A stretch of 64,000 nucleotides of DNA from Sagittula marina (GTDB taxonomy: Bacteria; Pseudomonadota; Alphaproteobacteria; Rhodobacterales; Rhodobacteraceae), in NCBI RefSeq assembly GCF_014196795.1, contig NZ_JACIEJ010000002.1, positions 62,001-126,000 of the forward strand, read 5' to 3'. Shown piece after piece: positions 25,052-43,085 of this stretch. Every line of letters starts with the position of its first letter. Position 1 is the first letter of the stretch. The translations under genes and the position numbers were made by a program. Under the pieces are notes generated by a model, which worked only from the letters and a program-made list of their open reading frames with translations, was not told the DNA's origin and ran no database searches.

Positions 25052-25052
<1 letters not shown>
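24270..25052 (-). CDS. Exported FG-GAP/VCBS-repeat protein
   Basis: 260 residues. An extended basic N-region is followed by a hydrophobic export segment (LALALVAGAAAVEAA, about residues 31-45). The mature part has short repeats of the FG-GAP type: LGPDGCAEVIVVES and the Ca2+-binding-like VDLDGDGAVEIAYIDR, then VAVDFDGMVQVARIG. A beta-propeller-like fold is likely. Its ATG overlaps the ferredoxin stop by one base (TGATG), so translation is coupled. Function unknown. Confidence 0.75.
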
Positions 25053-25510
<458 letters not shown>

Positions 25511-25516
25511 TCAAAT

Positions 25517-25531
25517 GTTCTATTTATGTTC
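25517..25531 (+). promoter_or_regulatory. LexA (SOS) box of the alphaproteobacterial type
   Basis: GTTC-TATTTAT-GTTC exactly matches the GTTC-N7-GTTC operator bound by alphaproteobacterial LexA. It ends two bases before the ATG of the DnaE2 remnant. imuA-imuB-dnaE2 cassettes in this class are controlled by such a box. Confidence 0.75.
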
Positions 25532-25533
25532 TC

Positions 25534-25890
25534 ATGAATTGGCCCCGTCCCCCTTCCGCCCTTCCCGCAGAGCTCCTGTCGCGTCCGCCGCTGGGGGCCC
25601 GCATCACCGTGGCCGGGCTGGTGATCCTGCGGCAACGCCCCGGCACCGCCAAGGGCGTGATTTTCCTGACGCTGGAGGATGAGACCGGCGTGGTGAACAT
25701 CATCGTCTGGCGCGCCATGTACGAACGGTTTCGCCGCGCGGTGATCGCCGGACGGATGCTGCGTGTCACCGGGCGCTTGCAGCGGGATCATGGCGTGTCC
25801 CATGTCATCGCCGAGGAGATTGAGGACATTTCGCAACTGCTCGACCGGCTGCTGGATCCCACGCTTCCACAAGGCCCGGAAATACGGTAG
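25534..25890 (+). pseudogene. dnaE2: C-terminal OB-fold remnant of error-prone DNA polymerase DnaE2
   Basis: 118 residues. Residues 19-105 match the C-terminal end of DnaE2 (ImuC): GARITVAGLVILRQRPGTAKG, FLTLEDETGVVNIIVW, ERFRRAV, and VTGRLQRDHGVSHVIAEEI followed by a leucine-rich end. The remaining ~950 residues of a DnaE2 (PHP, palm, fingers) are absent upstream, where a ferredoxin gene lies. The reading frame is intact, with an ATG two bases after a perfect SOS box. It is either a deletion scar of an imuA-imuB-dnaE2 operon or a small expressed OB-fold protein under LexA control. Confidence 0.8.
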
Positions 25891-25928: not shown

Positions 25929-26540
25929 GTGACACCCAAGCCCGATACGCGCCCCGCCGCGCGTCTCGTCTGGACCGGCGCGCGCCGCCGGGCTGCCTTC
26001 TGCGCGCTGTTGTTGTCCGCCACCGCTGCCTGCACGGATGGGCCTACGAATTCCGGGCCGGACGATACGGTCTATTCCGACATACAGCCCGTCGCCTTGT
26101 CCCCCGTGCCGCTCGCCACGCCTGTCATCGCCCTTTCGGACGGACGGTGTCAGGCGCGCGAGGAAACCCCCGCCGTTTACCAACAGGTCATGGGCGAGGT
26201 CAGGGTCATTCAGGCCGAAATCGCCGAGGATGGCACGGTCGTCACGCCCGCCGTCTATCGTCGCGCGCCGGTGCCCAAGGTCGTGAGAGAACGGTCCCAA
26301 TTCATATTCGAGGCCGTCTGCGGCCACCAGTTGACGCCGGAATTCATCTCCTCCCTGCAACGTGCCTTGGCGGCCCGCGACTACTTTGCCGGCAATGTCA
26401 CCGGCCGGATTGACGCGCCAACCTCCGCCGCCATTCACCGCTACCAAAAGGAACGCGGTCTCGACAGTGCGCAGCTGTCGCTGGAAACCGCGCGCTCTCT
26501 CGGGCTGATTACGGTGGACCTCCCCGATCCAAAAGGCTGA
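25929..26540 (+). CDS. Peptidoglycan-binding-domain lipoprotein
   Basis: 203 residues. The N-terminus has an arginine-rich start, hydrophobic core AAFCALLLSATAAC and a lipobox-like end (TAAC, cysteine near residue 35), suggesting lipidation. The C-terminal ~60 residues form a peptidoglycan-binding domain type 1 (LTPEFISSLQRALAARDYF, then GRIDAPTSAAIHRYQKERGL). It probably tethers the outer membrane or an assembly to the cell wall. The middle region is unassigned. Confidence 0.78.
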   Translation: MTPKPDTRPAARLVWTGARRRAAFCALLLSATAACTDGPTNSGPDDTVYSDIQPVALSPVPLATPVIALSDGRCQAREETPAVYQQVMGEVRVIQAEIAEDGTVVTPAVYRRAPVPKVVRERSQFIFEAVCGHQLTPEFISSLQRALAARDYFAGNVTGRIDAPTSAAIHRYQKERGLDSAQLSLETARSLGLITVDLPDPKG

Positions 26541-38326: not shown

Positions 38327-38755
38327 ATGATATATCCGCGCCCCTTCCCCCGGCTCGCGCCGTTGATCCTGGCCTTGATGCCCGGTTTGGCCAGTGCGGC
38401 GACCGGTCCGCCGCCGCCTGAGGGCGCGCTCAATCTGGCGGCGTGTCATGGATTTTACACTGCCGTCGTCGAACACAGCCGCCTCGTCGCCACGGAAAAC
38501 GACGCCGCACGCCTGCGACGTGACATGCTCGCCGCAATGATGAACGCCCTTCTGGCAGAACAGGTGGAGAACAGAAGCTACAAGGTGGCGTTGATGCAGT
38601 CGCGTGTCCGCGCCCGCAGCCAGATGCGCAATTTGTTTCGCAACGCGGACTTCGACAGTGACCCGCGCCGCAATCGCATTGCCAAGGGACAGATCCGACG
38701 CAGCCTTCGGGCTTGTGACAGCCTCATGATTGGCAACCGAACCGCACACTCCTGA
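38327..38755 (+). CDS. Exported hypothetical protein (142 aa)
   Basis: Starts at ATG 38327 with a signal peptide (FPRLAPLILALMPGLASAA). The mature part is helical and charged, with two cysteines (NLAACHGFY and LRACDSLM) that may form a disulfide in the periplasm. No family recognised. It ends 57 bases before cobT and may be transcribed with it. Confidence 0.65.
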   Translation: MIYPRPFPRLAPLILALMPGLASAATGPPPPEGALNLAACHGFYTAVVEHSRLVATENDAARLRRDMLAAMMNALLAEQVENRSYKVALMQSRVRARSQMRNLFRNADFDSDPRRNRIAKGQIRRSLRACDSLMIGNRTAHS

Positions 38756-41315: not shown

Positions 41316-43085
41316 ATGTTCCAGAGCTTTACCGAAACGGCCTCTCCCGCGCAGGGACCGGCCCGCCTCAGCGCCCTTCAGGATCTGCTCGCCGACCGTG
41401 GCTTTGACGGATTTCTCATCCCGCGCGCTGACGCGCATCAAGGCGAATATGTCGCCGCTCATGATGACCGCCTTGCATGGCTGACCGGGTTTACAGGGTC
41501 TGCGGGCTGGGCAATCGCGCTGCGCGACCGCGCCGCTATATTCACCGACAGCCGCTACACCGTGCAGGTGAAGGCGCAAACCGCCGATGTGTTTGAAAAA
41601 GTCGACTGGCCGGGTATTTCGCTGTCCGACTGGTTGGCGAAGGCGCTGCCGCAGGGGCGCCTTGCCTACGATCCATGGCTGTTGACGGTCAGCCAGAAAA
41701 AGGAACTGGAAAAGAACCTGCCAGAGGTCGAGCTGCGCGCCACCGACAACCTGATCGATGCCTTGTGGGAGGATCAGCCTGCGCCGCCGATGGCTGCGGC
41801 CTTTGTGCACCCGATGGACCTGGCGGGCGAATCCCACATGGACAAGATCGCCCGGCTGGCCAAAGACATCGCGCCGCAGTCTGCGGCTGTCATCACCCTG
41901 CCGGATTCGATTGCCTGGCTTCTGAACATCCGCGGCGGGGACATCCCGCGCAATCCGGTGGCGCATGGCTTTGCCATACTACATGCCGATGCACGGGTGG
42001 ATTTGTTCATGGACCCGGCGAAAACCGATGGCATTCGCGATCACCTGGGCGACAGCGTGCGCCTGATGCCGGTGGAAGCGTTTCTGCCCGCACTTGCCGC
42101 GCTGACCGACCCCGTGCGCATTGACCCGGAGTCCTGTCCCGTTGCAGTGGTTGATGCCTTGGCCAATCCGGTCGAGGGCCGCGATCCGTGCATCATGCCC
42201 AAGGCGCGAAAGAACCCGGCGGAACTGGAGGGCAGCCGCAACGCCCATCTGCGCGACGCCACCGCGATGGTGCGGTTTCTCGCATGGCTCGATGCCCAGG
42301 CGCCCGGCACGCTGACCGAGATCGCCGTGGTGAAGCAACTCGAAGCCTTTCGGGCGGAGACCAACGCGCTGCGCGACATCTCCTTTGACACGATTTGCGG
42401 TGCGGGAGACCATGGCGCAATCGTGCATTACCGCGTGACGGACGCCACCGACCGCGCCGTCCACGAAGGCGAGCTGTTGCTGGTGGATTCCGGGGGCCAA
42501 TATGTCGACGGCACGACCGACATCACCCGCACGATTGCCGTTGGCGAGCCGACAGAGGAACACCGCGATGCCTTTACCCGCGTGTTGAAAGGCATGATCA
42601 CCCTGTCCCGCCTGCGCTTTCCCAAGGGGCGGTCCGGGTCGGATATCGATGTGCTCGCGCGTCACAGCCTGTGGGAGGCGGGCCTCGATTATGGCCACGG
42701 CACGGGCCACGGCGTCGGCGCATATCTTTGCGTGCACGAAGGGCCGGCGAGCATTTCGCCCAAGGGGCGCGTCCCGCTGGAGCCAGGCATGATCCTGTCC
42801 AACGAACCGGGGTTCTACCGCGAGGGAGAATACGGCATTCGCATTGAAAACCTCATCATTGTCGAAGAGGCCCCCGCCCTGCCGCGCCAGAGCGTCGCAC
42901 AGATGTACCGCTTTGAAACGCTGACGTTGGTGCCCATCGACCGCCGCCTGATCGTGCCGGAATTGCTGCTCGACGCAGAGAAAACCTGGCTCGACGGGTA
43001 TCATCAGAGAGTGCTGGATACGCTCCTTCCGCATGTCGAAGATGCCGCAGAAGACTGGTTAAGGGTTGCATGTGCCCCCCTCTGA
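41316..43085 (+). CDS. pepP: Xaa-Pro aminopeptidase (M24B, AMPP-like)
   Basis: 589 residues from ATG 41316 with AAAGGAG upstream. Two creatinase-like N-terminal domains (RLSALQDLLADRGFDGFLIP, quoted in part; SVRLMPVEAFLPAL) precede the pita-bread catalytic domain. Metal ligands: the Asp pair in LLVDSGGQYVDGTTDITRT, His in GHGTGHGVGAYLCVHEGP, and the Glu pair in ILSNEPGFY and YGIRIENL. It cleaves N-terminal residues before proline. Cytosolic; length matches the three-domain family. Confidence 0.94.
   Translation: MFQSFTETASPAQGPARLSALQDLLADRGFDGFLIPRADAHQGEYVAAHDDRLAWLTGFTGSAGWAIALRDRAAIFTDSRYTVQVKAQTADVFEKVDWPGISLSDWLAKALPQGRLAYDPWLLTVSQKKELEKNLPEVELRATDNLIDALWEDQPAPPMAAAFVHPMDLAGESHMDKIARLAKDIAPQSAAVITLPDSIAWLLNIRGGDIPRNPVAHGFAILHADARVDLFMDPAKTDGIRDHLGDSVRLMPVEAFLPALAALTDPVRIDPESCPVAVVDALANPVEGRDPCIMPKARKNPAELEGSRNAHLRDATAMVRFLAWLDAQAPGTLTEIAVVKQLEAFRAETNALRDISFDTICGAGDHGAIVHYRVTDATDRAVHEGELLLVDSGGQYVDGTTDITRTIAVGEPTEEHRDAFTRVLKGMITLSRLRFPKGRSGSDIDVLARHSLWEAGLDYGHGTGHGVGAYLCVHEGPASISPKGRVPLEPGMILSNEPGFYREGEYGIRIENLIIVEEAPALPRQSVAQMYRFETLTLVPIDRRLIVPELLLDAEKTWLDGYHQRVLDTLLPHVEDAAEDWLRVACAPL

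What the first reader, a model, noticed from the sequence alone, without database searches (positions are those of the whole stretch)
25517..25890. SOS box fused to an orphan DnaE2 C-terminal OB-fold
A perfect GTTC-N7-GTTC LexA box lies two bases before the ATG of a 118-residue frame whose residues 19-105 match only the last part of DnaE2. imuA, imuB and ~90% of dnaE2 are missing. One internal deletion that joined the imuA promoter to the dnaE2 3' end would explain this. The frame is undamaged, so a DNA-damage-induced OB-fold mini-protein (a possible competitor in the ImuB/DnaE2 complex or an ssDNA binder) is a real alternative to a dead scar.
Basis: partly seen in the sequence, partly recalled or inferred. 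Interest (0 to 1): 0.72.

Follow-up and report, generated by a model that had tools for sequence, protein, structure and literature searches.

The report
DNA-damage polymerase split into two genes
A small gene with a DNA-damage switch, in a bacterium of the Roseobacter group, is not a leftover scar but the detached last domain of a mutation-making DNA polymerase whose body is encoded elsewhere in the same genome, an arrangement kept in dozens of related genera.

Summary
In detail: a LexA box (25517-25531) lies two bases before a 118-aa gene (25534-25890) that matches only the C-terminal OB domain of DnaE2. The deletion-scar reading does not. On another contig the same genome carries a DnaE2 that ends just before the OB domain: on NCBI's DnaE2 profile (1047 positions) the core covers 6-938, the window protein 944-1040. 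Of 150 family genomes (one per genus), 63 have both the stand-alone OB gene and an OB-less DnaE2, 71 a fused DnaE2 (one also has the split set), 12 neither, two only the OB gene, three only the core. Among 53 stand-alone OB loci read, 52 keep a ferredoxin neighbour and 50 the LexA box; the gene is under purifying selection. The 41 OB-less cores compared form one group in a tree. In the window genome ImuB and a distant ImuA homologue also lie apart, with LexA-type boxes; in some relatives ImuB lies near the core. Best explanation: one gene fission in the Roseobacter group made a two-chain SOS polymerase whose OB domain works in trans. Assembly, damage induction and LexA binding are inferred, not shown. 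I found no description of this in the papers searched.

The parts
25498..25503 (+). TTGGCG, -35-like element, 17 bp before the TATTTA inside the LexA box (inferred promoter)
   Evidence: Read from the sequence. A TTGN- or TGGAC-type element lies 13-22 nt before the box in 47 of 50 boxed loci, against 83 of 500 control windows. Promoter activity not tested.
25517..25531 (+). LexA box GTTCTATTTATGTTC (GTTC-N7-GTTC); its spacer holds a -10-like TATTTA, so LexA would cover the -10 region
   Evidence: conserved in 50 of 53 stand-alone OB loci read, controls 2 of 1060; the spacer begins TAT or TAC in 40 of those 50.
25534..25890 (+). Stand-alone OB-domain gene, 118 aa: the detached C-terminal OB domain of DnaE2. 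The start 2 nt after the box suggests a leaderless mRNA.
   Evidence: First in-frame start codon 16-17 nt from the first base of the box in 39 of 50 boxed loci. dN/dS 0.13-0.25 in 6 of 6 within-genus pairs.
25052..25375 (-). 2Fe-2S ferredoxin gene, divergent neighbour; the syntenic anchor, probably not part of the system
   Evidence: Fer2 E 7e-14; the same Fe-S motif on the opposite strand beside the OB gene in 52 of 53 loci.
25929..26540 (+). Downstream gene with a peptidoglycan-binding domain (lipoprotein-like start); no sign that it belongs to the system
   Evidence: PF01471 E 4e-7; its conservation beside the OB gene was not checked.

Best explanation
The window gene is the OB-domain part of a split DnaE2 (ImuC) translesion polymerase. 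Shown by sequence: in the Roseobacter group the C-terminal OB domain of DnaE2 was separated, most likely once, from the polymerase body. The body (PHP, palm, fingers, helix-hairpin-helix) and the OB domain are now two distant genes, each with a LexA-type box; in the window genome ImuB and a candidate ImuA also lie apart with such boxes. Inferred: DNA damage makes RecA trigger LexA self-cleavage, these promoters open together, and the small OB protein joins the DnaE2 core in trans, at the place the domain holds in one-chain DnaE polymerases: bridging fingers and thumb and touching the beta clamp and/or single-stranded DNA. This would complete the mutasome for error-prone bypass. The window promoter looks compact: the LexA box covers the -10 element and translation starts two bases after it, probably on a leaderless mRNA.
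For: Complementary coverage of NF004225: core 6-938 at 1218 bits, OB 944-1040. Co-occurrence in 150 family genomes: both 63, OB alone 2, core alone 3, fused 71 (one of them among the 63), none 12 (tally). All 12 'none' genomes also lack ImuB at the threshold used, and two of them (G117, G051) sit next to the window genome in a DnaE1 tree of 30 chosen genomes (SH-aLRT 95 and 98), so OB, core and ImuB seem to be lost together. 41 of 41 split cores tested (of 66 known) fall on one side of one branch (SH-aLRT 95). LexA-type boxes: OB 50 of 53; cores 39 of 40 in the form GAAC-N7-GAA[C/T] (15 of 40 in the exact form), controls 0 of 800; ImuB 26 of the 30 best-matching loci, and the window genome's ImuA candidate. 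Pairwise distances of OB follow those of the core (r 0.84) far better than those of the adjacent ferredoxin do (0.53; partial r 0.78; 38 genomes). Remnants of the fused C-terminus (HPRxQxKxLFPSRDFH) persist in three cores (HPRNVRFFS and similar) and, in G079, on the OB protein (THPRDQSKLLF). AlphaFold2 gives an OB fold, pLDDT 88. The loop RQRPGTAKG, nearly invariant, aligns with the E. coli alpha loop that holds R1004, K1009 and R1010, which lie at the clamp interface in PMC4703070 (passages).
Against: No physical interaction, induction or phenotype was tested; only the OB chain was modelled, not a complex. Five of 68 genomes with either split part have only one of them (some assemblies are fragmentary). 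The short OB tree (86 columns) needs two changes rather than one, although a single clade is not rejected (AU p 0.23). The exact LexA consensus is present in only 15 of 40 cores. The ImuA candidate scores 32 bits against a curated cut-off of 150, and no ImuB model named the ImuB, which is called so from its similarity to cassette ImuB. ImuB is not far from the core everywhere: same contig in 23 of 64 genomes, match centres within 5 kb in 5. The C-terminal SRDFH motif of DnaE2 is absent from all 41 split cores tested, so the split protein is not simply the fused one cut in two.
Confidence: 0.74

Rival explanations
1. Dead scar: one local deletion fused the imuA promoter to the dnaE2 3' end.
For: The frame matches only the last tenth of DnaE2 and has a LexA box like an SOS cassette.
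Against: Same gene, place and box in dozens of genera; purifying selection; the body of DnaE2 is elsewhere in the genome; no ferredoxin motif in 25 stretches read around fused cassettes.
Confidence: 0.01
2. The OB protein has left DnaE2 and now works alone as an SOS-induced single-strand-binding protein, while the OB-less core works without an OB domain.
For: OB folds often bind single-stranded nucleic acid; Foldseek's best matches include Stn1 and an RPA chain; PMC4703070 cites ssDNA binding by the isolated E. coli OB domain (passages). Some DnaE2 and DnaE3 are known to lack OB (PMC3919608, passages). Two genomes keep OB without the core.
Against: 63 of 68 genomes with either part have both, and OB is absent from all 12 genomes that lack core and ImuB; OB distances follow core distances. 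No SSB-family membership (PF00436 E 0.07).
Confidence: 0.13
3. The OB protein belongs to the mutasome but docks mainly on ImuB or the clamp rather than on the DnaE2 core.
For: ImuB is the hub that binds the clamp (PMC10421592, passages); OB is absent where ImuB is. An N-terminal WP[RKA]PP motif, in 50 of 53 stand-alone proteins and 0 of 20 fused ones, could be a new docking peptide.
Against: In one-chain DnaE the OB domain packs on fingers and thumb (PMC4703070, passages); distance correlation with the core is strong, though ImuB was not compared.
Confidence: 0.09
4. Split-intein trans-splicing rejoins core and OB, as recalled for cyanobacterial DnaE1.
For: A split C-family polymerase gene is known in that form (recalled, not tested here).
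Against: The cores end 1-59 residues (median 16) after the conserved LTP (39 of 41 measured), too short for an N-intein in most; no long extra stretch between start and OB in the aligned proteins (A1, 15 rows shown). No intein profile search was run.
Confidence: 0.01
5. Competitor or dominant-negative of the ImuB/DnaE2 complex.
For: A free domain could occupy a docking site.
Against: Only G033 of 66 genomes with an OB-less core has a fused DnaE2 too, so in the others there is no full-length DnaE2 to compete with.
Confidence: 0.02

Closest known systems
DnaE2 / ImuC error-prone C-family polymerase (NCBIfam NF004225)
   Same: Core and OB together cover the profile almost end to end; PHP, palm, fingers and HhH domains present; LexA-type boxes.
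   Different: The OB domain is a separate, distant gene; the C-terminal SRDFH motif is absent from the 41 split cores tested.
imuA-imuB-dnaE2 SOS cassette, including the split imuA'-imuB/dnaE2 form of mycobacteria
   Same: Same polymerase, ImuB and (candidate) ImuA, with LexA-type boxes.
   Different: Four separate places in the window genome (ImuB lies near the core in some relatives), and the polymerase itself is divided within the protein; the split cassettes described in the passages read keep DnaE2 whole.
DnaE2 lacking OB, noted as 'several' in Timinskas et al., PMC3919608 (passages read)
   Same: OB-less DnaE2 cores like those found here; whether the same sequences are meant is not known.
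   Different: That passage counts OB as missing; here the domain is present as a second gene with a LexA box.
Stand-alone ImuB-C modules (PMC6511836, passages read)
   Same: A mutasome domain that also occurs as its own gene.
   Different: Another domain (ImuB C-terminus), with other partners.
Cyanobacterial split DnaE1 with split intein (recalled)
   Same: A C-family polymerase encoded by two unlinked genes.
   Different: No room for an intein in most cores here; the cut is at the OB boundary; the polymerase is DnaE2, not the replicase.

Membership tests
DnaE2 / ImuC polymerase (NF004225) | PHP-Pol3-fingers-HhH core over the DnaE2 profile, above its cut-off | tested here: met
   Core in L003: 1218 bits, cut-off 939, profile 6-938; Pfam palm, fingers and HhH above cut-off, PHP just below it (25.0 against 26.4 bits).
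DnaE2 / ImuC polymerase (NF004225) | OB domain in the same chain | tested here: not met
   Core ends before OB; OB is a separate gene.
DnaE2 / ImuC polymerase (NF004225) | Acidic active-site motif (PDIDVDFEH-type) | tested here: met
   Found in all 61 core loci scanned by pattern; that this is the active-site motif is recalled; metal binding not tested.
DnaE2 / ImuC polymerase (NF004225) | C-terminal SRDF[H/R] motif (about 77% of DnaE2, PMC3919608) | tested here: not met
   0 of 41 split cores; 19 of 20 fused relatives have SRDFH.
ImuA-ImuB-DnaE2 mutasome | All three genes present | tested here: inconclusive
   DnaE2 core clear; ImuB by similarity to cassette ImuB and an IMS domain; ImuA only a distant match, 32 bits against a cut-off of 150.
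ImuA-ImuB-DnaE2 mutasome | Genes in one or two operons | tested here: not met
   Window genome: C1 (ImuB), C8 near 13 kb (core), C8 near 150 kb (ImuA candidate), C2 (OB). In relatives ImuB is within 5 kb of the core in 5 of 64.
ImuA-ImuB-DnaE2 mutasome | LexA control | tested here: inconclusive
   LexA-type boxes at all four genes of the window genome; binding and induction not tested.
ImuA-ImuB-DnaE2 mutasome | Required for induced mutagenesis | not testable with these tools
   Needs mutants.
SSB family | Match to PF00436 above cut-off | tested here: not met
   E 0.073, 13.6 bits against 26.
Split-intein DnaE | Intein halves at the break | tested here: not met
   Median 16 residues (1-59) after the core's LTP; no long extra stretch before the OB fold in A1. 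Judged by length; no intein profile was run.

The most novel reading that the evidence does not exclude
A natural two-chain C-family DNA polymerase without intein: the OB domain has become an exchangeable SOS subunit that is titrated separately from the core, so that the core stays poorly active until its OB partner is made and brings it to the clamp, and the same OB protein may also serve other clamp-bound partners. Mutagenesis in a large group of bacteria would then depend on up to four separately tuned LexA promoters.
Probability: 0.25. Interest if true: 0.82.

Novelty: new variant of a known kind. Interest (0 to 1): 0.64.

Why it matters
What the OB domain of C-family polymerases does is disputed (single-strand binding or clamp contact; PMC4703070, passages read). 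A lineage in which evolution has already cut the domain off, kept it, and put it under the same kind of damage box makes the question directly testable by simple gene removals. It also shows that the SOS mutasome can be scattered over several places with the polymerase itself divided, so surveys that look for an imuA-imuB-dnaE2 cassette or a full-length DnaE2 can miss or misname it.

Tried and rejected
Scar, competitor and intein readings: see rivals. PF20114, which I recalled as a mark of the ImuB C-terminus, gave nothing in the window genome. A first search for core start sites by pattern was poor and was replaced. In one search core L103 was skipped because its frame (901 aa) lacks the N-terminal motif; whether this is a frameshift was not examined. 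The sorting into split and fused was made by me from frame lengths and places. Partial frames at contig ends (G087, G091, G142, one copy of G011) were counted as fused where the OB match follows the core match on the same contig (for G011 across the ends of one contig), and G143's core frame (482 aa, at a contig start) as split. The 'stops inside' flags were not examined. ImuB was called absent at E above 1e-25; two genomes with fused DnaE2 (G023, G061) also fall below that line, so 'no ImuB' means none at that threshold. The DnaE1 tree is one gene, a quick search, with long branches that its own checks warn about; over its 30 rows the split, fused and 'none' genomes are not clustered (changes near the shuffled mean), and I use it only for the place of G117 and G051. 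The OB tree needs two changes; the AT-rich long branch L114 (G086) is my guess at the reason, and L114 has the same ferredoxin neighbour and an identical LexA box. dN/dS compares blocks cut at fixed offsets from a motif, without an alignment. Of the two other LexA-box matches in the window (38558, 41703), the second lies inside an aminopeptidase-like frame and the first was not pursued; their number is what chance gives. Paper searches for a separate OB gene of DnaE2 or for OB-fold SOS genes in this group, and for neighbouring topics, showed no description in the listings and passages seen; most subscription papers are not held, and the dispersal paper of Erill et al. 2006 was not held. The D. 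shibae LexA paper (PMC6473078) was read only as passages; its supplement, which lists predicted LexA sites, was not readable here.

Full report
WHAT IS IN THE WINDOW. The finding is exact: GTTCTATTTATGTTC at 25517-25531, then TC, then ATG at 25534, and an open frame of 118 codons to 25890. In this window alone the motif is no better than chance (3 found, 2.05 expected). The protein is an OB fold (PF01336, E 2.5e-13) and matches the error-prone polymerase model NF004225 only at positions 944-1040 of 1047. AlphaFold2 with 57 aligned sequences gives a confident OB fold (mean pLDDT 88, pTM 0.80). Foldseek's first 50 matches are OB domains of Stn1 and related telomere complexes, of aspartyl-, asparaginyl- and lysyl-tRNA synthetases and of RPA; no DnaE is among them. 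A profile of the family aligns, weakly (E 0.04), with residues 986-1074 of E. coli Pol III alpha.

THE REST OF THE POLYMERASE IS ELSEWHERE. A search of the window's own genome with the polymerase family found two C-family polymerases: DnaE1 and, on contig C8, a second one. The second is a DnaE2 of 1007 aa that covers NF004225 positions 6-938 with 1218 bits (cut-off 939) and has palm, fingers and HhH domains and a weak PHP match, but no OB domain. Its last conserved residues are the LRAHPVALLR..LTP segment that leads into the OB domain in fused relatives. The window protein is the only match to its own sequence in the genome. The two genes therefore complement each other almost to the residue.

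IT IS A CLADE-WIDE STATE. In 150 genomes of the family, one per genus, asked for at 90% completeness or more, 135 match the OB protein and 136 the C-terminal part of the core. Sorted by frame length and place: 63 genomes have a stand-alone OB gene and an OB-less core, 2 only the OB gene (G049, G059), 3 only the core (G042, G062, G146), 71 a fused DnaE2, 12 neither. G033 is counted both as split and as fused: its fused copy lies on a 126,304-bp contig with the same length and place as pDSHI03 of Dinoroseobacter shibae, so G033 is very probably that species. In the window's genus 4 of 4 genomes, its own included, have the stand-alone gene (the three others 77-83% identical). In 241 genomes of the class, 116 match; outside this family 109 of 112 matching genomes have OB in a frame of at least 1000 codons, and the other three (G285, G315, G343) were not examined further.

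ONE ORIGIN. A tree of 61 DnaE2 bodies, with the OB region cut off, puts all 41 split cores in it on one side of a branch (SH-aLRT 95, quick search; 1 change against a shuffled mean of 17). Of the 68 genomes known here to have a stand-alone OB gene (65 of the 150 and three more of the genus), 53 loci were read. The OB gene lies divergently beside a 2Fe-2S ferredoxin motif in 52 of them; the exception is G079 (the script's own count of 51 leaves out L030, whose motif lies 1505 bases away). None of the 25 stretches read around fused cassettes and none of the 41 split-core loci has that motif. Even the AT-rich genome G086, whose OB protein is only 40% identical, has the ferredoxin motif and the identical box GTTCTATTTATGTTC. 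The OB tree is weaker: 86 columns, two changes, single clade not rejected (AU p 0.23). The fused relative that branches nearest to the split cores, G007, carries DnaE2 with OB and SRDFH and its own LexA box; no imuA or imuB was seen in the roughly 4 kb read upstream, and its best ImuA and ImuB matches lie on another contig. This suggests that dnaE2 left the cassette before it was split. Remnants of the fused C-terminus (HPRxQxKxLFPSRDFH) occur at the end of three cores that form one clade (HPRNVRFFS and similar; 0 of 2000 shuffles reach three, although one clade is one event) and near the end of the OB protein of G079 (THPRDQSKLLF). The simplest inference is a duplication of dnaE2 followed by complementary loss; this is not proved.

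SELECTION AND LINKAGE OF FATE. Within the genus, dN/dS of the OB block is 0.13-0.25 in 6 of 6 pairs; over all 53 loci the median is 0.22 (1128 of 1378 pairs with dS below 3; highest 0.62; blocks of 92 codons cut at fixed offsets). The aligned proteins of A1 (15 rows) show no internal gap in the OB fold. OB distances follow core distances (r 0.84), the adjacent ferredoxin's much less (r 0.53), partial r 0.78, in 38 genomes. The 12 genomes without core and OB also lack ImuB at E 1e-25, and two of them, G117 and G051, sit next to the window genome in a DnaE1 tree of 30 chosen genomes, so the set seems to be lost together. Core and OB gene are on the same contig in 8 of 63 genomes, never nearer than 323 kb.

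CONTROL. An exact GTTC-N7-GTTC box (either strand) lies within 250 nt upstream of the RQRPG motif in 50 of 53 stand-alone OB loci (missing: L017, L113, L125; L113 has one 647 nt upstream of its match), against 2 of 1060 control windows. GAAC-N7-GAA[C/T] or its mirror lies upstream of 39 of 40 split cores (15 of 40 in the exact form; missing L110; L103 skipped), against 0 of 800, but only 2 of 20 fused genes have a box of their own. In the three fused cassettes read further upstream (G089, G112, G033) dnaE2 follows imuB. ImuB has an exact box in 26 of its 30 best-matching loci, all from genomes with the split core, and the window genome's ImuA candidate has GAACATTTCGCGAAC ending 17 nt before its start. 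ImuB is not far from the core everywhere: of 64 genomes with both listed, 23 have them on one contig and 5 within 5 kb between match centres, so core and imuB may come from one old neighbourhood. In 39 of 50 boxed OB loci the first in-frame start codon lies 16-17 nt from the first base of the box, so the mRNA is probably leaderless. The box spacer begins TAT or TAC in 40 of 50, and a TTGN- or TGGAC-type element lies 13-22 nt before the box in 47 of 50 (controls 83 of 500). The window's TTGGCG at 25498-25503 is 17 bp upstream of its TATTTA. These are readings of sequence; no promoter was tested.

HOW IT MOST LIKELY WORKS. Shown: fission of DnaE2 into two conserved genes, shared LexA-type boxes, linked fates. 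Inferred from what is known of the families: in E. coli Pol III alpha the OB domain bridges fingers, thumb and exonuclease and touches the clamp through a loop and a short helix; its isolated form binds ssDNA, and the residues whose mutation reduced synthesis lie at the clamp interface (PMC4703070, passages). The loop RQRPGTAKG, nearly invariant in the stand-alone proteins, aligns with that loop. I therefore think the OB protein supplies this contact in trans. An N-terminal WP[RKA]PP motif is present in 50 of 53 stand-alone proteins (not L114, L118, L129) and in 0 of 20 fused ones; it may be the docking handle, which is a guess.

COMPARISON WITH PRINT. Timinskas et al. (PMC3919608, passages) state that several DnaE2 lack the OB domain and describe the SRDF[H/R] motif; the passages do not mention a separate OB gene ('separate gene' does not occur in the main text). 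PMC6511836 (passages) describes stand-alone ImuB-C. PMC10421592 (passages) gives ImuB as the clamp-binding hub. PMC9426580 (passages) reports a plasmid imuA-imuB-dnaE2-type cassette of D. shibae. PMC10883770 (passages) reports imuB-dnaE2 covariation in P. inhibens and calls them one operon there, so that strain may carry a cassette. PMC6473078 (passages) lists LexA sites of D. shibae; imuA, DNA polymerase and OB-fold do not occur in its main text. PMC1839093 (passages) is about Caulobacter. Nine paper searches showed no description of a DnaE2 with its OB domain in trans; subscription journals are mostly not held.

VERDICT. Not a scar and hardly a competitor, but one half of a divided SOS polymerase conserved across the Roseobacter group. 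The architecture is a new variant of the known DnaE2 mutasome. The assembly in trans is likely but untested.

Noticed in passing
G000:C8:149951-150376 (L193:2805-3461 -): A distant ImuA homologue (35% identity, below the NCBIfam cut-off) stands apart from imuB, with a LexA-type box ending 17 nt before its start.
   Followed up: partly
L113 (G079): In one genome the OB protein carries a long low-complexity insertion between the WPRPP motif and the OB fold, and keeps the DnaE2-type tail THPRDQSKLLF; it is also the only one of 53 loci without the ferredoxin motif.
   Followed up: partly
G033 (contigs C1 and C4; plasmid record NC_009957.1): A genome that is very probably Dinoroseobacter shibae carries both the split chromosomal set and a fused imuA-imuB-dnaE2 cassette on a conjugative plasmid.
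   Followed up: partly
G092, G030, G133, G041, G055: In these genomes ImuB lies within 5 kb (match centres) of the OB-less DnaE2 core; perhaps a trace of an older shared neighbourhood.
   Followed up: partly
G049, G059; G042, G062, G146: Genomes with only one of the two parts (OB only, or core only); whether these are losses or assembly gaps was not settled.
   Followed up: no
G315:C8:33253-33555: Outside the family, an OB match in a 650-codon frame, possibly a broken or differently divided DnaE2.
   Followed up: no
window 38558-38572 and 41703-41717: Two further GTTC-N7-GTTC matches; the second lies inside an aminopeptidase-like frame. The number of matches in the window is what chance gives.
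   Followed up: partly
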